Below, in pieces: positions 116-10,070 of a stretch of 10,070 nucleotides of DNA. This stretch comes from Spirochaetaceae bacterium (GTDB lineage: Bacteria; Spirochaetota; Spirochaetia; SZUA-6; Bin103), in assembly GCA_028818385.1 (NCBI GenBank), contig JAPPNY010000031.1, positions 1 through 10,070 on the forward strand, written 5' to 3'. The position numbers and the translations under genes were made by a program. How positions within the stretch are numbered: position 1 is the first letter of the stretch; every line of letters starts with the position of its first letter. Under the pieces are notes generated by a model. It saw nothing but the letters and a program-made list of their open reading frames with translations, was not told the origin of the DNA and made no database searches.

Positions 116-787
116 ATGCTTGCCACCATGGACCGCTGCGGCATTCGCAAGACCTTCTTCGCCCATCACCGCGCCCTGCGCGACAGCGAGCTCGGCAACC
201 GGGACGCGGAGGAGGCGATCGCAAGGTTCCCTGACCGGTTCGCCGGCTACTGGGCGGTCACTCCCCTGTATCCTGAGCGCGTACGCAAGGAAGCCGCAGA
301 GCTGGACCGGCATCCCGGATTCGCCGGCTTCAAGATCCTGGCGGCCTACTACCGGGTCGCCATCACCGATCCGCGATGCAGGCCGGTGTGGGAGCGGGCG
401 CATGACGAGCACCTCCCGGTGCTGATCCATACCTGGGGACATGACGGCTACGGCGATTGCCCGCACGTCGAGAAGATCGCGCAGACCTATGGGCAGGCGA
501 GGATCGTCATGGGGCACGCCCAGTACGGCGACTGGGACGCCGGCATCGAGCTGGCCCGGCGCTTCCCCAACGTGTACCTGGAGCTGTGCGCCGCCTACCA
601 CGTGAACGGCAGCGTCACCCGGATGGTGAACGCGGGCGTACAGGACAAGATCCTGTATGGCGACGACCTGCCGTGGTTCAACCCCCACTACGGCATCGGC
701 TGCGTGCTCTTCTCCAGGATCTCCGATGCGGCCCGCCACGCGATCCTGCACGAGAACGCGGAGCGGATCTTCGAACGCTGGCTCTGA
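116..787 (+). CDS. Amidohydrolase-2 family metal-dependent hydrolase, N-terminus missing
   Basis: A 223-residue protein resembling the TIM-barrel amidohydrolase-2 family (Amidohydro_2), cytosolic hydrolases or decarboxylases of small cyclic or carboxylated substrates. Visible family blocks are VLIHTWG at about residue 102 (metal His), IVMGHAQYGDW at about 126 (second His) and ILYGDDLPW near 180 (catalytic Asp). The terminal helix NAERIFERWL is also typical. The usual N-terminal HxH metal motif, normally about 60-100 residues earlier, is absent. In frame, sequence upstream reads family-like (TPEQLPEDMLATMDRCGI) back to about position 59, where a TGA at 56-58 closes the frame. ATG 116 is therefore only the first available start, and the gene is probably 5'-truncated or frameshifted rather than naturally short. 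The stop abuts the GTG of the next gene with no gap. The family call is solid; substrate is unknown and activity without HxH is doubtful. Confidence 0.75.
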   Translation: MLATMDRCGIRKTFFAHHRALRDSELGNRDAEEAIARFPDRFAGYWAVTPLYPERVRKEAAELDRHPGFAGFKILAAYYRVAITDPRCRPVWERAHDEHLPVLIHTWGHDGYGDCPHVEKIAQTYGQARIVMGHAQYGDWDAGIELARRFPNVYLELCAAYHVNGSVTRMVNAGVQDKILYGDDLPWFNPHYGIGCVLFSRISDAARHAILHENAERIFERWL

Positions 788-1019
788 GTGAAGACCCTTA
801 CGGTCAGACTGCCGGAGCAACTGGCCACGTTGCTCGAGAATGAGTCCCGGCGCTCACACCTCTCAAAGTCGGAGATCGTCCGCATCAGCCTGAAGCGGCA
901 TCTGAGCGCGGCACCTCCGTCAAGCACTCGATGTTGCCGGCGATCTCGCCGGTTGCGTGGACAGCGGTGTCGACGACCTCTCTTCCGACCAGACCCGCCT
1001 GCAAGGGTTCGGGCGCTGA
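788..1019 (+). pseudogene. CopG/RHH-type antitoxin of a VapB-like pair, frameshifted
   Basis: Starts at a GTG directly after the amidohydrolase stop. The first 38 or so residues are a classic ribbon-helix-helix DNA-binding domain: a beta strand KTLTVRLPE, a helix around LATLLENESRR, then SKSEIVRISLKRHL. The expected tail continues in frame +3, not the starting frame: residues DVAGDLAGCVDSGVDDLSS then QTRLQGFGR and TGA at 1017-1019, the usual acidic toxin-binding C-terminus of RHH antitoxins paired with PIN toxins. The shift lies between about 905 and 930. In the native pair the antitoxin would repress its own promoter and neutralise the toxin next door. The stop overlaps an ATG (TGATG), the usual translational coupling to the toxin. 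As it stands the protein would lose its toxin-binding tail. Confidence 0.7.
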
Positions 1020-1380
1020 TGTCGTGGGCTGTTGGACACCGGACCGCTGGACGCCTTTTTCGACCGGCGGGACCGGTTCCATCCGTGGGCCCTGGAGCAG
1101 TGGCGACGCGCTCCGATTCCGTTTCTCAGCTGCGAGGCGGTGTTGGCAGAAGCGACGTCCCTGCTGCAGCAGCATGCGGGCCTGAATCCCGCGCGTGTGT
1201 TGACTCTGATCGAACGAGGTGTGGTGGCGACACGCTTTCCGTTCAGTGGCCACGCCGGCTCGCTGATGCGCCTGCTCGACAAGCACGCCGACCAGAACAT
1301 GCAGTTCTGCAGTTCGCCGACTCATGCTTGGTGCTGATGTCCGAGATCACCCCCAACTGCCGCGTATTCACGATCGACGG
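1020..1380 (+). pseudogene. PIN-domain toxin (VapC-like), frameshifted
   Basis: PIN-domain RNase toxin partner of the preceding antitoxin. All four acidic positions of a PIN active site can be read: Asp in LLDTGPLDAFF (from 1029), Glu in CEAVLAEATSLL, Asp in QFADSCLVLMSE and Asp in RVFTID (about 1376). They are not in one frame. The main part is in frame +3 (from the TTG at 1032), while QFADSC onward is in frame +2 because of an 8-bp tandem duplication at 1301-1316. The ATG overlapping the antitoxin stop (1019-1021) is also out of frame with LLDTGP, implying a second indel near 1021-1029. After FTIDG the family match is lost, so the C-terminus is ill-defined. The frame +3 product stops at about 101 residues and lacks two catalytic Asp. 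VapC toxins normally are about 130-140 residues and cleave tRNA or rRNA; this one is very probably dead. Confidence 0.7.
1301..1316 (+). repeat. 8-bp tandem duplication causing a toxin frameshift
   Basis: The unit GCAGTTCT is followed immediately by GCAGTTCG. Removing one 8-bp copy restores the reading ATG CAG TTC GCC GAC, i.e. the expected MQFADSCLV of a PIN toxin. This is a replication-slippage type duplication rather than a homopolymer miscount. Confidence 0.75.
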
Positions 1381-1638
1381 CTCAAGGAGCAACTGTGCAA
1401 GGCGATGGAGAGGATGGATTGAGGCACGGAGGCCGGAAGGCTTGCGACGATCAGCAAGTGCTCGTATGGGATGACGTAGCGGGCAAGTGGGAAGGCGTAG
1501 CGTTCTCAGGGCGATCCGCCGGCGGGGAACACCCTGCGAAGGCCGATAAACCGCACGGCTCCGCGACCGCGGAGCCGCTGGCATAACCGTTTTCCGTTCG
1601 TATCCAGCTTCATTGCATTGCTCCCTTGGGCGCTCGCC
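1381..1638. other. Intergenic stretch between the toxin remnant and the hydrolase gene
   Basis: The sequence after the last toxin motif carries no recognisable family. An open 63-codon frame (1395-1586) has unconvincing composition and no good ribosome-binding site. The only structure that stands out is the GC hairpin at 1556-1577. The genes on either side converge here. Confidence 0.4.
1556..1577. terminator. GC-rich hairpin, possible bidirectional terminator
   Basis: A perfect 9-bp stem (CGGCTCCGC at 1556-1564 pairing with GCGGAGCCG at 1569-1577) around the 4-nt loop GACC. It lies 62 nt beyond the stop codon of the minus-strand hydrolase and after the plus-strand toxin remnant, so it sits between convergent genes. 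U-tracts are weak on both sides: TTT on the minus strand, and TTTT 11 nt after the stem on the plus strand. A terminator role is inferred from position. Confidence 0.35.
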
Positions 1639-3324: not shown

Positions 3325-5073
3325 TCACCGGCCGCACCCATAACCGGGACGGTGCGAGCATGTAACCGCATACGTACCGGCATTCACCGTAACCCTTCCA
3401 TCAGGCGCAATGTACCAGATGTTGATCTGATCCTCCGCGAGCTGATCCCAGTCGATCGAGGACATGGTATCCGATAGGCCTGCTTCTTGGCTGCAGAGAA
3501 TATCATAAGCAAAGAGTCCGCTGTTATTGGTGTGAACATATCCGATTACAATCTTTCCCTCATCAGCCAGGAACGCACCCACGCCACTGCCTGCCGTGCC
3601 CCCGGACGACAAGTGCTGATACTTGTGTGCGGCCGACGACCCGTCAGCTATTTCCAAATAGGCGGAATCGCTACCGACGTTCTCGACTGTATAGTGCGGA
3701 ATCTTGTTCCCGTCTTGGTCACTCTCCACGGTCCACTCCAAGATCCGCAAACCCGCGAATCCTGATCCTCTCTCACACTCCGCAATTCGGTTCGCTCGCG
3801 CCGGCTCATCCCCAGACATCGTTCCCTGTCGTTCCACCTCGGCCTCCCCCCGACGCGGTGTCTGGGCCTCGGTGGAACCCTCGCCATTGCGGCCCGTATC
3901 CGCGGCCACTCCACCGTTCGTCGTGGTGGACCTCTGTCCTCCGCCCTCGCGACGTTCTCCAGACTCCTCAGCGCAGGACGACACGTAAAGCCGACAGTCC
4001 TTGCCTCCCTTGTCCTCGCACTCACCGACAGCGGCCTCCGTGGCCTGGAGCTTCGTATCGAACTCGCTGCCCCAAGCGTGCACCCTGCTGCTGCTCTGAG
4101 TCTGGCCAGCCGCATAGGCGGCACATCCTCTTTCGAAGGTCATCACGATCCTGCAACTTTCGCCGCACTCTTCAAGCGCCCCTTGCCTCGCGTCCGCCAT
4201 CTTCGCGTAGCCGGCAGCCCACCCCCACGATCCTCGATTCGCGTCGATCGCCAGTGCGCCCGCGGCGTCTTCGTTCGCCGTGAACATGCCGAGCATGCCC
4301 GTCACGACTCCGGTGTCCTGCTGTGCCGCATCGTGCCCGGATGGGCTCGTGGTCGCGCCGGCATCGGTCGGTGGCGTCTGCGCGCCGCTGCCGAACATCC
4401 CCAGCAGGTCGATCACGGTGAGCGTATCGACGAACTCCATGAACACGTCGGCGAGCTGCGTCGCGCTGGCCGCGTGATGGTACTGCCCGCCGCTCGTGGT
4501 CGCGACGTGGCGCAGGTCGCGGGCGGCGTCCGATGCGGGTTCGATGCCGAACCCGACCGTCTCGTGCCGGAACACGATGCCGGCCGCTTGCAGTTGCGCC
4601 ATCGCCTGCGCGACGTCTCCGCACGCGTTGTCACCGTCCGCGAGCAGCACGATCATCTGCGAGTTCGCCCGCGGATTGCGGTTGGCCTGCATGAACCGGT
4701 TCGCAACCAGTACCGCCTCCGCCATCGGCGTACCGCCCCCCGGTCGCAAGCCGTCGATGAAACGGGTCAACCGATCCCTGTCGGTGGTGAATCCAAGCCG
4801 TTCGGACACCGGGTTGTCGCACTCCCCTTCGAAGGCCAGGATCGCCACTTCCGTACGGCCCGCCAGCGCTCGGTCGACCGCGGCGATCGCGGCCTCCTTC
4901 GCCGCTTCGAGCTTGATCTCGGCGTTACCGCTGCCGATTGGATCGCCCATGCTTCCGGACGTGTCGACGAGCAGCAGCAAGCTGCTGTGTACCCTCGGCG
5001 TTTGACCGAACGAGGGGGCCGCCGCGGCCAGCAGAACGCACAGGATACCGGTCATTCGGTACGCGAACATCAT
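3325..5073 (-). CDS. Secreted von Willebrand A + DUF4189 protein
   Basis: A 582-residue exported protein. Tandem ATGs at 5073/5070 (another at 5055) precede a signal peptide, MTGILCVLLAAAAPSFGQ. No strong Shine-Dalgarno is visible, so the exact start is uncertain. Residues about 30-217 are a vWA domain with a complete MIDAS: DTSGS at 37-41, Thr in GGGT near 115 and Asp in LLADGD near 146, i.e. metal-dependent adhesion or ligand binding. Residues about 273-367 match DUF4189: ALAIDANRGSWGWAAGY, then spaced cysteines (about 303, 307, 317, 352, 360, 367). A Gly/Glu/Thr-rich linker (368-425) leads to an unrecognised C-terminal domain ending in paired cysteines. LGMF occurs twice in the linker after the vWA. 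It follows the DGR RT remnant in the same orientation. Without the signal peptide break, its frame runs open into the RT; I treat them as separate genes. Partner unknown. Confidence 0.8.
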   Translation of the reverse strand: MMFAYRMTGILCVLLAAAAPSFGQTPRVHSSLLLLVDTSGSMGDPIGSGNAEIKLEAAKEAAIAAVDRALAGRTEVAILAFEGECDNPVSERLGFTTDRDRLTRFIDGLRPGGGTPMAEAVLVANRFMQANRNPRANSQMIVLLADGDNACGDVAQAMAQLQAAGIVFRHETVGFGIEPASDAARDLRHVATTSGGQYHHAASATQLADVFMEFVDTLTVIDLLGMFGSGAQTPPTDAGATTSPSGHDAAQQDTGVVTGMLGMFTANEDAAGALAIDANRGSWGWAAGYAKMADARQGALEECGESCRIVMTFERGCAAYAAGQTQSSSRVHAWGSEFDTKLQATEAAVGECEDKGGKDCRLYVSSCAEESGERREGGGQRSTTTNGGVAADTGRNGEGSTEAQTPRRGEAEVERQGTMSGDEPARANRIAECERGSGFAGLRILEWTVESDQDGNKIPHYTVENVGSDSAYLEIADGSSAAHKYQHLSSGGTAGSGVGAFLADEGKIVIGYVHTNNSGLFAYDILCSQEAGLSDTMSSIDWDQLAEDQINIWYIAPDGRVTVNAGTYAVTCSHRPGYGCGR

Positions 5074-5107
5074 GCATCCGCGAAAGTACACCGGGTAAAC
5101 GACCGTG

Positions 5108-5895
5108 TCACCTGCCTGTGCCGCCGTCGCCGCGCAAACGGCGGAGCGCCGGAGGGACCGGGCGTGCGCCGTCCTGCACGGAAGGCGGCGCCCCTCCCCC
5201 GCGAGCGCGGGGCAGGAGGGGCGCCGGCCGTCGATCGTGATACCAGTCTTGCACGCATGCAGGCACAGGCGCCGGCCTTCCCGGTACCTGCCTATTCGCA
5301 ACCGCCATTCCTGCAGCCGCTCGGCGTCGTCGTGAACAACGCGAAGTCGTCCACGTAGCGCAGATAACCCTTCGCCCGCAGCACTTCCTTGCAGAAGTGG
5401 TCGAGCCCGTTCAGATAGAGGTTGGGCGAAAAACTGGCTGGTCAGGTTGCCGATCGGCAGGCCGCGCCGCCGAAAGTAGCGGTAGATGTCGCAACGCAGG
5501 ACCGAGCGGAAGCGGTCGCGGAACGCCTCGTAGCGGACCACCGCGCGGTGCGTCCCCTTGCCCGTGCGGTTGGCGTAGCTGTCGTCGATGAACCCCCGGT
5601 CGAAGATCGGCTCACACACCTCGCAGAAGGCGTGGTGCACGACACGGTCGCGGAACGGCGCTGCGGAGACTACGCGGTGCTTGGGGTCGCGTATCTCGAT
5701 CCTCTTGTAGCGGCCCGGCCGGTAGCGTCCGCACCACAGTCCCCGCTCCAGGCGCAGCAACTCCTTCTCCAGGTTGGCCAGAAACGCCGCCGCCCCCGGC
5801 TTCGCCCGCTTGCCTCGGGCCGCGCGGCGGGCAGCCGCGTGCAGCGCCGGGAACGAGGCGATGCCGTCAAACAGGTCCTGTTCTTTCGCGGGCAC
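5108..5895 (-). pseudogene. DGR-type reverse transcriptase, decayed
   Basis: The GTG at 5895 starts VPAKEQDLFDGIASF. Family blocks that follow are RYKRIEIRDPKHRVVSAAPF, RDRVVHHAFCEVCEPIF, DDSYANRTGKGTH and RCDIYRYF (motif A Asp), then RRGLPIGNLTSQFFA, typical of DGR reverse transcriptases such as the Bordetella phage enzyme. Defects: the palm segment normally between motif A and RRGLPIGN (roughly 35-60 residues) is absent at about 5472. After SQFFA (about 5424) the frame shifts, so NLYLNGLDHFCKEVL and LRYVDDFALF are in another frame (YVDD at 5346-5357). It shifts back near 5333, giving DDAERLQEWRLRIGRY. A further shift around the GRRLP block leads to TGA at 5108, and the C-terminal thumb is missing. 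A working enzyme would copy the template repeat with errors at adenines. Overlaps avd by about 29 nt, suggesting translational coupling. Confidence 0.85.
5186..5226. repeat. Strong 12+5 bp hairpin in the 3' part of the RT remnant
   Basis: CGGCGCCCCTCC (5186-5197) pairs perfectly with the segment at 5215-5226; an inner CCCGC/GCGGG stem closes on the loop GAGC, with a 3-nt bulge. No T-tract follows on either strand. It lies where the RT should encode the LGF-like region, so it may be a later insertion or rearrangement. It could also block read-through from the DGR genes into the vWA gene. Confidence 0.6.
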
Positions 5896-6352
5896 GATGC
5901 GCCTTGCTCCACGCGCCGATCTTGCGTCCGGTCTCGTCCAAGCGCGCCGCGTGCTCGTAGCGGCGCCGATCCAGATGGCGCAGATCCTGCGCCAGCCGCA
6001 GCAGAAAGCGGAGCTTCTCCACGCCCAAGTTGGCGCGCGCCAAGTGACCGCCCCGCTGCCGCGCATAAGTCGCCTCGATCAGCGACTCCAGCACGTCCAG
6101 CGCCGTGCCCTGAATGCGGTCGCCCAGCAGGAACTTCTGGCTGCGCGGGAACCGCTCCAGCGCCGGCACCAGCCACAGCAGGAACCGATAGTGCGCCTCC
6201 AGCGCCGCGCCGGTGGTCCGGGACCGATCCATGCCGCCGGAAGGAAGGGACGAGCCATCCAGTACGCGGCCCTCGTTCGAGGGGCCGTCACCCGTGACGG
6301 CAGCGGAGGACCCGTCCCGCTCTATCCATCCGTCTGCCTCATCGCGGTTCAC
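5867..6352 (-). CDS. avd: Avd-type DGR accessory protein (four-helix bundle)
   Basis: Accessory variability determinant: in characterised DGRs a small basic pentameric four-helix protein that binds the RT and the template RNA and is needed for cDNA synthesis and mutagenic homing. The core spans residues about 49-155: HYRFLLWLVPALERFPRSQK, FLLGDRIQGTALDVLESLIEA, LARANLGVEKLRFLLRLAQDL and RRYEHAARLDETGRKIGAW, four amphipathic helices rich in Arg/Lys, without frameshift. The open frame begins at GTG 6352 next to a GGAG, giving a Ser/Gly/Asp-rich 40-residue leader. ATG 6232 (residue 41) would give about 121 residues, closer to the family's usual size. The leader DNA contains two hairpins and may instead be untranslated. 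Lies between the target and RT, and its 3' end overlaps the RT start. Intact, unlike its RT partner. Confidence 0.82.
   Translation of the reverse strand: MNRDEADGWIERDGSSAAVTGDGPSNEGRVLDGSSLPSGGMDRSRTTGAALEAHYRFLLWLVPALERFPRSQKFLLGDRIQGTALDVLESLIEATYARQRGGHLARANLGVEKLRFLLRLAQDLRHLDRRRYEHAARLDETGRKIGAWSKAHRARERTGPV
6268..6301. repeat. Adjacent overlapping GC hairpins before the Avd core
   Basis: GGCCCTCG (6268-6275) pairs with CGAGGGGCC (6278-6286) with one bulge, and GCCGTCAC (6284-6291) pairs with GTGACGGC (6294-6301). The two stems share three bases, so they may be alternative folds. They fall in the possible N-terminal leader of avd, between target stop and the Avd core. Confidence 0.55.
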
Positions 6353-6408
6353 CTCCGGCAGTCACGTGCCTCGACGAACGCCGGCACCAATCCGATGCCG
6401 GATTTTCT

Positions 6409-6427
6409 CCAGAGGGCTCCGCCCTGG
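6409..6427. repeat. Hairpin downstream of the DGR variable region
   Basis: On the minus strand CCAGGGC, loop GGA, GCCCTCTGG: a GGGC/GCCC plus CCA/TGG stem with a 2-nt bulge, about 25 nt after the target stop codon. Known DGRs have a hairpin or cruciform shortly after the initiation-of-mutagenic-homing (IMH) sequence that helps homing; this is a candidate, as is the smaller palindrome at 6449-6462. Confidence 0.4.
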
Positions 6428-6448
6428 TCCCCCGACGTAAGGACCCAA

Positions 6449-6462
6449 CGACTCAGGAGTCG
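6449..6462. repeat. Small palindrome spanning the target stop codon
   Basis: CGACTC-AG-GAGTCG (6 bp stem, 2-nt spacer) covering the TGA of the target gene, immediately 3' of the variable region. Second candidate for the DGR post-IMH hairpin, although the loop is smaller than in described cases. Confidence 0.4.
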
Positions 6463-7826
6463 AGCGTCCGGGCAACGCGAAAACCGAGGTCGAAGTTCCG
6501 GCCCCCAGAGAAATGCCAGCCGCGGATCGCCGAGCGCACGTTCGACGGAAAGCTGTCCCACGAGCCCCCGCGCACCACCCTATTACCGCAATCGCCGCGC
6601 TGCCATGCACTGCCATCGCTCGGAGCGCCGTGATATCTGTCGTTCCAGCAATCCTGAACCCACTCCTTCACGTTCCCCAATGTATCGTGTATCCGGTACG
6701 CATTCGCCTCGAAACTCCCCACAGGTGCCGTCCGAAAATAGCCGTCGTCGCAACCTGCCACCGTTCCATAACTTTGGTGTTTCTTCGCTGTCTGGTCGGC
6801 TCCATTCTCATAGCGACACTGTCTGCTACTGCTCTCGCCCCAATAGCTCCTAGTGCTCGTTCCCGCTCGTGCCACGTATTCCCACTCCGCTTCGCTGAGC
6901 AGCCGATACGCATGGCCGGTTCCCTCGCTCAGCCACGCGACGAAGCGCTGCGTGTCTTCCCAACTCACGTTGATCACCGGTCGCCGGCCGCGTCCCCAGC
7001 CCTTGTCGTCAGGCCGGTACCCGCCGCACCCTCCGGCCGCGACGCACGCATCCCACTCCGCGAACGTCACCTCGTACACGCTCACCGCGAACGGTTTCGC
7101 GATCGTCACCCAGTGTAACGGCATTTCGTCAGCGAATCCGCCCCCCGACGGTGATCCCATCTGGTAACTCCCGGCGGACACCAAAATCATCTTCATCTTG
7201 CTAGCCACGTCCTGCGCCGCTCGTGCGGCTCTCTCCGCAGCTGCTCTCTCCGCGGCTGCTCTCTCTGCGGCCGCTCTCTCCGCTGCTGCCTTCTCCGCTG
7301 CCGCCGCTCTCTCTGCTGCTGCCTTCTCCGCTACCGCCGCCTGCGCTTGCTTTTCGGCTTCCGAAACCTCGTGGAGTAGAGTCAGCGCTTCCCGGTAGTG
7401 CGTTCCTGCTCGGCCGGCCAGCTCCAGGTAGCGGTTCAACGACTCGATGGCCTCCGCATACGATCCGGCGCGCTCCAACACTTCCGCATACTTGAAGTGA
7501 AACACGTCCGGTGTCTTCAAGTCGTGCTTCTTCTGCAGATCGAGAATTTTTTCCATCGCTTCCTGCGCGGCCGCGTAATCCTGCTCCTTGATGTACGCTT
7601 CCGTCTGCACCAGATACAGATCGACCTGAATCTCCGGCGACAACTCGGCTGCTGCCGACAGGGGCACCAACGTGATGAGGACCATGACCGCAGCGCCGAG
7701 TAGTGCGGCTCTGGTGCGTTTATCGACGGCGCGACATGCGCGGTGATGCGGGCGCGGCGCACGTGCCCGGCCACCGTTTGCTAGATGCCGCGCGCTGCGG
7801 ATTCGGTCGCGGGTCTGCTCGATCAT
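6453..7826 (-). CDS. DGR target: exported TPR-like / coiled-coil / FGE-sulfatase (SUMF1) domain protein
   Basis: 457 residues, intact; ATG 7826 has AAGGAG 6 nt upstream. A long basic leader (1-40) precedes a hydrophobic segment (about 41-60, ALLGAAVMVLITLVPLSAAA), a signal peptide or anchor. Residues about 63-155 form TPR-like helices (QEAMEKILDLQKKHDL, YAEAIESLNRYLELAG). Residues about 155-205 are an Ala/Glu/Arg coiled coil with repeated AAAER. The FGE-sulfatase/C-type-lectin-fold domain runs 210-455: MKMILVSAGSYQMGS, YEVTFAEWDACVAAGG, RPVINVSWEDTQRFVAWL, YRLLSEAEWEYVARAG, DTLGNVKEWVQDCW, then GGSW and GFRVARTL. In DGR targets this fold displays variable ligand-binding residues instead of generating formylglycine. 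It is upstream of avd and RT in the same orientation. Natural ligand unknown. What I infer is a displayed, diversifiable binding protein now possibly fixed in sequence. Confidence 0.88.
   Translation of the reverse strand: MIEQTRDRIRSARHLANGGRARAPRPHHRACRAVDKRTRAALLGAAVMVLITLVPLSAAAELSPEIQVDLYLVQTEAYIKEQDYAAAQEAMEKILDLQKKHDLKTPDVFHFKYAEVLERAGSYAEAIESLNRYLELAGRAGTHYREALTLLHEVSEAEKQAQAAVAEKAAAERAAAAEKAAAERAAAERAAAERAAAERAARAAQDVASKMKMILVSAGSYQMGSPSGGGFADEMPLHWVTIAKPFAVSVYEVTFAEWDACVAAGGCGGYRPDDKGWGRGRRPVINVSWEDTQRFVAWLSEGTGHAYRLLSEAEWEYVARAGTSTRSYWGESSSRQCRYENGADQTAKKHQSYGTVAGCDDGYFRTAPVGSFEANAYRIHDTLGNVKEWVQDCWNDRYHGAPSDGSAWQRGDCGNRVVRGGSWDSFPSNVRSAIRGWHFSGGRNFDLGFRVARTLDS
6460..6590 (-). other. 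Putative DGR variable region (VR)
   Basis: Last part of the target gene, from about N415 to the IMH-like end. Fixed-looking parts are RVVRGGSW, NVRSA and LGFRVARTL. Between them lie D424, S425, F426, I434, G436, H438, F439, S440, F445 and D446, mostly encoded by NNY codons, as expected if the template had AAY codons changed only at adenines. Homologous FGE-type DGR targets typically read GGSWxxxPxxxRSAxRxxxxxxxRxxxxGFRVAR. The GC-rich end (GTTGCCCGGACGCTC) can act as IMH. No template copy was seen in the window, so VR status rests on position, family and codon pattern. Confidence 0.72.
7225..7345 (-). repeat. 15-bp tandem repeat encoding AAAER coiled coil
   Basis: Imperfect tandem copies of a roughly 15-bp unit (plus-strand form GCTGCTCTCTCCGCG and variants) encode the AAAER/AAAEK series at residues about 163-200 of the target protein. 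Such arrays change copy number by slippage and would alter the stalk length between TPR-like and ligand-binding parts. Confidence 0.75.
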
Positions 7827-8344: not shown

Positions 8345-8865
8345 ATGACCGCGACGCAGAAATACCTGTGCGACCTGCAGGGCTACCTCCTCGTCGAGGA
8401 CGTGCTCACCGACGAAGAGTGCGAGACAGCCAAGCACAAGATCACCGAGCGCATGCAGCCGCTGGAGAAACCCCCGACGGCTACGACGCGAACGGCACCT
8501 GGCACCGCTGCGCGGGGCTGGTCAAAGCGGGCGAGCCGTTCATCTCGCTGATCGACCACCCCCGGGCTGATGGAGGTGCTGACCGAGATCATCGGTCCCA
8601 AGCTGCGCCTGGAGAGCGCCTACAGCTTCGTGCGCTCCAAGGGCTGCCCGCAGTTCGAGATGCACGGCGGCCATCGCGGCGGCCGGGTCAACTTCCGCTA
8701 CCACGTGCAGGGCGACCGGATCTTCACCGGCCTCACCGTCGTCTCCTTCGCGCTGCAGGAGATCACGGACGAGGACGGCGGCTTCGCCTGCATCCCCGGC
8801 TCCCACAAGTCCGACTTCCGCGTCCCGGACGAAGACCGCGCGCGGCTCTACGCGGTCGACGGCTC
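8345..8865 (+). pseudogene. Phytanoyl-CoA dioxygenase (PhyH) family protein, frameshifted and 3'-truncated
   Basis: Start ATG 8345 with TGAGGT 6 nt upstream. The first block (frame +2), KYLCDLQGYLLVEDVLTDEE, is the N-terminus common to PhyH-type Fe(II)/2-oxoglutarate oxygenases. TPDGYDANGTWHRCAGLVKA follows in frame +1, then MEVLTEIIGPKLRLESAYSF and FTGLTVVSFALQEITDEDGG-FACIPGSHKSDF again in frame +2. The shifts coincide with base runs: one base lost in AAACCCCC near 8468, one gained in CCCCCGGG near 8564. The protein ends near RARLYAVDG, where an ISNCY-type transposase remnant begins in the opposite direction. The C-terminal iron-binding His and 2-oxoglutarate Arg region is therefore missing, and enzyme function is unlikely. 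Divergent from the DGR target gene; no sign of a shared role. Confidence 0.72.
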
Positions 8866-8867
8866 TA

Positions 8868-9293
8868 CATCCACGCCGACGGCGTCATGTCGGTCGGTTC
8901 CATGCCGCGTTTCTTGCGTAACGCCACGTGCTCGACCCCCAGCTTCTTGGCCTCCCTCAGATTCTCCCGTGACGCATACCCGCCATCGAACGCCGCGCAC
9001 TACGGCGGCTTCGGCGTAGACTTCCCACGTGCCGCCTCAGCATCGGCAGTCAGCGCGTACTGTCCGCCGGGTTGCCATCCTCGACCACCACGTCGAGCGC
9101 CAGCCCACTGCGCCCGCTGCTCAGGTTGGTCCTGTGCCCGTACTCGGTCGCACGCCCGCCGTTGACGACGGATGTCGGTGTTCCGCTCGAACAGCCTCAC
9201 CACCTTCTCCCCGGCCGGCACCATTTCGTCGAACACGCGCCGTTTGGTCTGGTCCACCACCCGCGCGAGCAGCTCCAGAAAGTGGACTGTCAC
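8868..9293 (-). mobile_element. ISNCY-type transposase remnant
   Basis: Minus-strand blocks in several frames: HFLELLARVVDQTKRRVF, MVPAGEKVVRLFERNTDI, then in a shifted frame VVNGGRATEYGHRTNLSSGR and LALDVVVEDGNPADST, then in another AAFDGGYASRENLREAKKLG and VEHVALRKKRGMEPTDM. These match the order of the DDE transposase of ISNCY/IS1202-type elements (HTDI, EYGHK, DGNPADS, FDGGYAS, KKRG). N-terminal half and C-terminal end are missing and no inverted repeats were found. It lies against the cut end of the PhyH gene; the 9-bp direct repeat CGGCTCTAC (8843-8851, 8860-8868) spans the join. Confidence 0.65.
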
Positions 9294-9388: not shown

Positions 9389-10070
9389 TCAGTTCTTAAC
9401 GCAGTACAGAAGCGATACACTCTTCGGCCGCGTTTCATTGCCACACTCTTCACAAGTGGTCGCCGTCAGTCGGACGGTACGGTTGGCCCATGGAGGCCCA
9501 TCGTCATAGTTTATTCTGTCCTTATCTCCGTTTCCCTCTACGCTTTTCCCGCCTTCCAATGGGCCCACCAAGTGAGCGTGACTACGGATCATATCTTCCC
9601 TTAGATCACCGTATTTCAGTTCTCCATCGGGATCTATTTTGCCGCTTCGATCGATCCCCCGCACGAATCTGCCATATGCGGGCTCGTATTCCGACCACCC
9701 AACCGGGCAAGAACTTGCTGCAAATGCCACTACTGCCTTGGGCGGAGTATAGTAGTACTCTGACACTTCCGCTGGTATATCTATCGCAAAAGCTGGTCCG
9801 GTCGTGTTAATGACGACGGATCCCGAAGCGTACTTTACGGTTGCTACGCCATCTACGGCGGAAAACGATGGCGGCAATCGTTGACAATCTACATGAATGT
9901 TCGCATTCGAAATCGCAGGAATGTCTTGCGAACGAACGACATTCTCATACTCATCTGACCCTGTCGATTGACGCTCAATACTTAGGCGATTCCCGTCCTC
10001 ATTTATGTGACTAATGTGAGCCTCTTGCAAAACTCCGGGGATTCCCTTGGTTGCAGACGGCTGTCCGTAG
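9389..10070 (-). CDS. Tail-collar-like C-terminal domain protein, 5' end outside window
   Basis: The frame stays open through the right edge (YGQPSATKGIPGVLQEAHIS...), so the TTG at 10030 is not needed as a start and the gene is partial: at least 227 codons. The C-terminal half has VVAFAASSCPVGWSEYEPAY, GRFVRGIDRSG, a DPDGELKYGD stretch, SHAH and the closing ETRPKSVSLLYCVKN. CPxGW followed by GRF, then SHxH and ETRPxxVxLLYC, is the pattern of phage-tail-collar-type fibre tips and related surface proteins. It could be a prophage tail fibre fragment or a cellular exported protein. Lower GC and a more even codon use than the DGR genes suggest separate origin. No DGR variable region is apparent in it. 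Confidence 0.6.
   Translation of the reverse strand, partial: YGQPSATKGIPGVLQEAHISHINEDGNRLSIERQSTGSDEYENVVRSQDIPAISNANIHVDCQRLPPSFSAVDGVATVKYASGSVVINTTGPAFAIDIPAEVSEYYYTPPKAVVAFAASSCPVGWSEYEPAYGRFVRGIDRSGKIDPDGELKYGDLREDMIRSHAHLVGPLEGGKSVEGNGDKDRINYDDGPPWANRTVRLTATTCEECGNETRPKSVSLLYCVKN

What the first reader, a model, noticed from the sequence alone, without database searches (positions are those of the whole stretch)
5108..7826. Diversity-generating retroelement with FGE-type target, avd and decayed RT
Target, avd and RT lie consecutively on one strand. The avd/RT overlap and the FGE-type variable C-terminus are established DGR hallmarks. The unusual part is that target and avd are intact while the RT is broken, suggesting a DGR caught after loss of its mutagenesis engine, with the last selected variant fixed.
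Basis: partly seen in the sequence, partly recalled or inferred. Interest (0 to 1): 0.85.

Follow-up and report, generated by a model that had tools for sequence, protein, structure and literature searches.

The report
Dead diversity-generating retroelement with frozen target
A bacterial protein-diversifying cassette has lost its copying enzyme and its template, leaving its target protein stuck with one variant; dead cassettes of this kind were already known, but this one shows clearly which parts were lost and which were kept.

Summary
The minus strand carries a TPR/FGE-type target gene (6453-7826), avd (5867-6352) and a remnant of a diversity-generating retroelement (DGR) reverse transcriptase (about 5236-5895). 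All three identities pass profile or PDB-sequence tests. The RT is broken: 52 codons between motif A and the SQ motif are missing, two frameshifts bound the YVDD block, and about 460 nt (RT thumb, template repeat and its 3' spacer, judged from three relatives) are gone. The right breakpoint lies at a hairpin (5187-5225) that follows the template repeat in those relatives. No template repeat was found in the window. The variable region shows the adenine-biased pattern against relatives' templates, and is nearly the same in the two closest known proteins, as expected of a frozen target. Inactivated DGR RTs are in print. New member of a known kind, of modest interest, mainly for the recurrent RT loss.

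The parts
6453..7826 (-). DGR target gene, 457 aa: leader, TPR-like part, Ala-rich linker, FGE-sulfatase domain
   Evidence: Pfam FGE-sulfatase 1.1e-50; PDB PvdO 5hha 2.4e-48 and Treponema variable protein 2y3c 1.7e-6
6459..6581 (-). variable region; the 24-codon variable block is 6486-6557 (my arithmetic)
   Evidence: differences from relatives' template repeats are concentrated at template adenines, p 2.8e-4 to 1.5e-6 against four templates
6409..6427 (-). remains of the hairpin downstream of the variable region, arms unequal
   Evidence: compared by eye with stems in 12 other VR ends, 7 of which have an even CCAGGG-type stem or a close form of it
5867..6352 (-). avd, 161 aa, open frame with a one-codon deletion
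   Evidence: NCBIfam DivGenRetAVD 94 bits, cut-off 80; residue missing that 120 of 120 aligned homologues have
5236..5895 (-). RT remnant: N-terminal block to motif A (5895-5472); 156 nt missing at 5471/5472; SQ motif; frameshifts near 5425 and 5335 bounding the YVDD block; homology ends at about 5236
   Evidence: PDB 8ub7_A 1.5e-22
5187..5225 (-). hairpin that lies after the template repeat in relatives; here it sits six bases after the end of RT homology and marks the right side of the deletion
   Evidence: blastn matches at L001 6692-6738, L003 7618-7660 (1.7e-9 each) and L032 4752-4703 (3.7e-5); coordinates; folds

Best explanation
A DGR of the order target-avd-RT-TR that died in this lineage. 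The intact ancestor copied the TR RNA with the RT-Avd complex, put random bases opposite template adenines, and replaced the 3' end of the FGE target gene with that cDNA (the established DGR mechanism, inferred for the ancestor). Deletions then removed part of the RT palm, and the RT thumb together with TR and spacer. Without template and polymerase this locus can no longer rewrite the target, which keeps the variable region of its last conversion and changes only by ordinary mutation and recombination. Shown: identities, deletions, no TR found in the window, adenine-biased pattern, VR shared with the two closest proteins. Inferred: order of losses, no rescue in trans, continued use of the target protein.
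For: Avd and FGE profiles; RT closest to 8ub7 in PDB; 156-nt gap against L032 and about 460 nt missing against L001, L003 and L032, ending at a hairpin that follows TR there; no TR found in the window by three searches; adenine bias against four templates; window, P0121 and P0122 share VR at 0.79-0.96 identity, whereas 14 of 16 other pairs with core identity of at least 0.93 have 0.29-0.62; avd codon loss.
Against: No whole genome is held for the window, so a second RT or TR elsewhere is not excluded. 2 of the 16 comparison pairs also share an identical VR. The one VR difference from P0121 (S425D) probably needs two base changes at template-adenine sites, as residual activity would give; 3 of the 4 VR differences from P0122 also fall on codons that are Asn in relatives' templates (my reading of the codons). 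The two frameshifts could be sequencing errors; the two deletions hardly. The adenine bias is measured against other species' templates and partly reflects tolerant positions.
Confidence: 0.9

Rival explanations
1. The locus is a non-autonomous satellite: a complete DGR elsewhere in the genome supplies RT and TR in trans and this target is still diversified.
For: Remote targets exist (PMC7517822, passages); in L003 one TR matches several FGE domains around it; target and avd frames are open; the S425D difference from P0121.
Against: VR nearly constant in the closest three proteins; the VR-side hairpin looks shortened; in 5 of 5 close relatives with a broken RT no second full-length RT was found in the draft assemblies.
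Confidence: 0.06
2. Assembly or sequencing artefact: the real locus has an intact RT and TR.
For: The two frameshifts bound a short block and cancel each other; the source of the window is unknown.
Against: Two separate deletions of 156 and about 460 nt plus an in-frame codon loss in avd are not typical sequencing errors; similar RT losses occur in unrelated drafts.
Confidence: 0.03
3. The FGE gene is an ordinary FGE/PvdO-like gene that happens to lie beside a DGR remnant.
For: Best PDB and NCBIfam matches are PvdO; the NCBIfam score (183.5 bits) is far below that model's cut-off of 500.
Against: Adenine-biased 3' end against relatives' templates, the DGR gene order, and hypervariable 3' ends among close homologues.
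Confidence: 0.01

Closest known systems
Inactivated DGRs described with DiGReF (PMC3521204; passages, section 8)
   Same: DGR RT genes broken by nonsense, frameshift or insertion beside a recognisable target
   Different: There the VR/TR pairs are intact; here TR, spacer and RT thumb are deleted as well
Cyanobacterial orphan variable proteins and degraded cassettes (PMC7517822; passages)
   Same: A target left behind after loss of the diversifying parts, which the authors suggest may follow selection of a good variant
   Different: That case has C-type lectin targets and no RT remnant nearby; here the FGE target, avd and RT remnant are still side by side
BPP-1 DGR of Bordetella phage (8ub7 is recalled as its RT-Avd complex; PMC3240598 and PMC12875486, passages)
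   Same: RT and Avd families, SQ motif, hairpin after the variable region, spacer after TR
   Different: BPP-1 is active and has TR between avd and RT; relatives of this window have TR after the RT, and the window has none
Treponema variable protein TvpA (2y3c)
   Same: FGE-type DGR target by sequence, E 1.7e-6
   Different: Here there is a TPR-like part and an Ala-rich linker in front, and PvdO is the closer PDB sequence

Membership tests
Diversity-generating retroelement | DGR-type RT with (L/I/V)GxxxSQ motif | tested here: met
   IGNLTSQ in the remnant (motif as given in PMC3521204); 8ub7_A best PDB match. The gene is a remnant only
Diversity-generating retroelement | functional RT (motifs A, B, C in one frame, with thumb) | tested here: not met
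   52 codons missing, two frameshifts, thumb missing
Diversity-generating retroelement | accessory protein Avd | tested here: met
   94 bits over a cut-off of 80
Diversity-generating retroelement | template repeat near the RT | tested here: not met
   none found in the window; present in 6 of the 14 relatives examined (L001, L003, L032, L034, L050, L056)
Diversity-generating retroelement | variable region differing from the template mainly at adenines | tested here: inconclusive
   own template lost; against four relatives' templates 20/29, 20/29, 21/30, 24/33 at A versus 19/67, 15/67, 15/66, 13/63 elsewhere
Diversity-generating retroelement | hairpin downstream of the variable region | tested here: inconclusive
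   uneven stem in the window; fold energy not below shuffles (z -0.2)
Diversity-generating retroelement | adenine-specific diversification in cells | not testable with these tools
   needs reads from populations or an assay
Group II intron or retron RT | closest relatives among group II intron or retron RTs | tested here: not met
   8ub7_A 1.5e-22 against 6ar1 1.9e-7 and 5hhj 7.2e-4; NCBIfam group II model 44.4 bits, cut-off 300. No tree was made

The most novel reading that the evidence does not exclude
DGRs of this FGE, TR-downstream clade are repeatedly switched off for good: RT and often TR are discarded while target and avd stay, so the DGR acts as a disposable search device that leaves fixed proteins behind, some of them reshuffled onto new front ends (as in P0122). 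Of 8 closely related avd loci, found by Avd alone, 5 have no intact RT.
Probability: 0.25. Interest if true: 0.6.

Novelty: new member of a known kind. Interest (0 to 1): 0.35.

Why it matters
It is a readable fossil of how a DGR ends: the deletions can be placed against intact relatives, and the frozen variable region can be set beside homologues that still vary. If loss of the RT with the target kept proves as common as in the small sample here (5 of 8), such hypermutation cassettes would be passing tools rather than lasting systems, which population data could test.

Tried and rejected
Search for a TR in the window by adenine-tolerant alignment on both strands, from the VR, and by TR peptide: none. 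Own genome: not held. Viral contigs searched with Avd: no relative. Rfam at gathering thresholds on the window and on six loci: no family. Group II intron or retron origin of the RT: disfavoured by SQ motif and PDB ranking; no tree was built. AlphaFold model of the target: mean pLDDT 65.4 with the FGE part poor, so no fold search was made. The tblastn of the VWA neighbour used a wrong frame and is void; repeated (no VWA or lipase-like neighbour found in 14 relatives at 1e-4). The avd codon loss as proof of a dead Avd: not claimed. A special reason for keeping avd: not needed, since the RT is about three times as long and so is hit more easily.

Full report
What is there. The minus strand reads target (7826-6453), avd (6352-5867) and an RT remnant (about 5895-5236), followed by a VWA/DUF4189 gene with an ATG at 5073. 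The target has a TPR-like part, an Ala-rich linker and an FGE-sulfatase domain (1.1e-50); its PDB relatives include PvdO (2.4e-48) and the Treponema variable protein 2y3c (1.7e-6). Avd passes the NCBIfam cut-off for the DGR accessory protein and matches the PHROG 'Avd protein of DGR'. The RT remnant matches 8ub7_A (1.5e-22; recalled as the BPP-1 DGR RT) far better than the group II intron RT 6ar1 (1.9e-7) and carries IGNLTSQ, the SQ motif that PMC3521204 (section 8) gives as typical of DGR RTs.

How it is broken. Against intact relatives the RT lacks 52 codons between motif A (RCDIYRYF) and RRRGLPIGNLTSQ; on DNA the alignment to L032 jumps 156 nt at 5471/5472. The YLRYVDD block is in another frame, bounded by shifts near 5425 and 5335. 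RT homology stops at about 5236. Six bases further on begins a hairpin stretch that blastn finds at L001 6692-6738 and L003 7618-7660 (1.7e-9 each) and L032 4752-4703 (3.7e-5), each time downstream of the TR. The stretch between these two points is about 460 nt longer in each of the three relatives (my arithmetic on positions), and there it holds the RT thumb, TR and spacer. A single deletion would account for it. No TR was found in the window by three searches.

Further decay. The window Avd lacks one residue at a column filled in 120 of 120 homologues aligned (the 120 best of 1795). Of 12 other VR ends looked at, 7 (two of three in L003, and L032, L033, L050, L052, L053) have an even GC stem of one type soon after the VR, 2 (L034, L056) have another stem, and 3 (L003c, L002, L054) have none that is good; the window has a stem of the common type with unequal arms, and its fold energy is not below that of shuffles (z -0.2). 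The comparison of arms is by eye.

Adenine pattern and freeze. The own TR being lost, I compared the VR with TRs of four relatives over 96 nt: differences at template A are 20/29, 20/29, 21/30 and 24/33, at other bases 19/67, 15/67, 15/66 and 13/63 (L003, L032, L050, L056; p 2.8e-4, 2.3e-5, 2.4e-5, 1.5e-6). The other-base differences include ordinary divergence, and Asn codons of the template lie where the fold tolerates change, so this is support, not proof. For the freeze I took 121 target proteins (window plus the 120 best of 6494 hits). 98 held the VR motif used and 69 of these had the window's VR length; the other 52 were dropped. Window-P0121: core 1.00, VR 0.96; window-P0122: 0.96 and 0.83; P0121-P0122: 0.96 and 0.79. 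The other 16 listed pairs with core identity of 0.93 or more have VR identity 0.29-0.62 in 14 cases and 1.00 in 2 (P0178-P0187, P0235-P0239). The pairs share members and are not independent. Against a complete freeze: the one VR change from P0121 (S425D) probably takes two base changes at template-adenine sites, and 3 of the 4 VR changes from P0122 fall on codons that are Asn in relatives' templates. The best-120 lists for Avd and RT show no protein whose longest contig has the length given for P0121 (1,012,970) or P0122 (79,296). That fits loss there too, but the lists are capped and may reflect gene calling. P0122 is a mosaic: 54/92 identical in the TPR part, but 56/61 in the linker and 202/211 in the FGE core.

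How common. Avd searches covered 274, 198, 289 and 48 genomes, with 12, 14, 9 and 7 having a match; the last set overlaps the second, and many matches are distant. The centres G001-G003 had come from the Avd scan. I examined 14 loci beside the window (L001-L003 and the 11 regions; L004 and the other distant matches were not examined). A single-frame RT with SQ and YxDD motifs is present in 4 (L003, L032, L034, L050), a frameshifted RT with TR in 1 (L056), a gapped, truncated or absent RT in 7 (L001, L002, L033, L035, L051, L052, L053), and 2 are cut by a contig end (L054, L055). Among the 8 whose Avd matches over most of its length at 65% identity or more (G001, G002, G003, G450, G474, G485, G507, G661; in G003 split by a frameshift) the RT is intact in 3 (G003, G450, G661) and not in 5. 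RT searches at E 1e-20 gave only pieces in G001, G474 and G507 and nothing in G002 and G485; G002 also had no RVT_1 match. These are drafts of unstated completeness and the numbers are small. In G001 the TR is kept beside the broken RT. The RT is about three times as long as Avd, so chance alone would hit it first.

Mechanism. Intact relatives show the working state: TR directly 3' of the RT and, in L003, several FGE domains whose 3' ends differ from one TR mainly at adenines (for example 19 A and 3 other mismatches over 119 nt). By the established DGR mechanism (recalled; and passages of PMC12875486: the spacer after TR recruits RT-Avd and primes the cDNA) loss of spacer, TR and polymerase leaves no diversification from this locus. 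The target then keeps its last variant. Whether that variant was selected is not shown.

Compared with print. Inactivated DGR RTs are described in PMC3521204 (section 8 read), and removal of the diversifying parts after selection of a variant is suggested in PMC7517822 (passages). PMC8144416 tells active from inactive DGRs by population data (passages). So the kind is known. I make no claim that the frequent RT loss is unpublished. The host could not be named: P0122, one of the two nearest target proteins, is labelled Spirochaetaceae bacterium, which is only a hint.

Noticed in passing
L001 6662 (+), L003 7588 (+), L032 4779 (-), L050 2700 (-): A near-invariant block GCGTCCAGGG..GG.CATGATGA lies about 55 nt after the TR in 4 of 4 loci of this clade that keep a TR, followed by a strong hairpin. 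Six loci, three of these among them, gave no Rfam family. It may be the spacer that recruits RT and Avd; the window has lost it.
   Followed up: partly
L012, L046, L048, L070, L084, 150 nt after the TR: A second conserved post-TR pattern (TCCATG, then TTC..GCCT, then AATAG) in 5 more distant loci.
   Followed up: no
P0241-P0360: Many homologous RT frames run on through the TR: 48 of 120 end in a peptide with VQG, which fits the block after the TR, and P0326 carries an FGE Pfam match from reading the TR in the target frame.
   Followed up: partly
L003 1-12346: Nitrospirales draft with one TR at 7418-7540 and eight FGE domain ends in the same stretch that match it to various degrees; its avd is split by a frameshift.
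   Followed up: partly
P0122: Mosaic target: distant TPR part (54/92) but near-identical FGE core (202/211), as if a fixed variant were moved onto another front end.
   Followed up: partly
P0299: A 254-aa RT homologue without a Pfam RT match that loses its frame just after the SQ motif, another broken RT of this clade.
   Followed up: no
3325-6066 (-): The RT remnant is in frame with the downstream VWA/DUF4189 gene, giving a 913-aa open frame; the VWA gene probably starts at its own ATG at 5073.
   Followed up: partly
788-1400 (+): Ribbon-helix-helix protein start (RHH_1 2e-5) followed by what looks to me like a frameshifted toxin gene without a Pfam match: perhaps a decayed toxin-antitoxin pair.
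   Followed up: no
8345-9016 (+): Phytanoyl-CoA dioxygenase gene apparently split over two frames (E 0.013 and 9.7e-5).
   Followed up: no
116-784 (+): Amidohydrolase (Pfam 2.4e-25) matching only from profile position 64 on, perhaps truncated at its start.
   Followed up: no
9389-10069 (-): C-terminal part of a tail-collar-fibre-like protein (PHROG 4.9e-7), running off the window.
   Followed up: no
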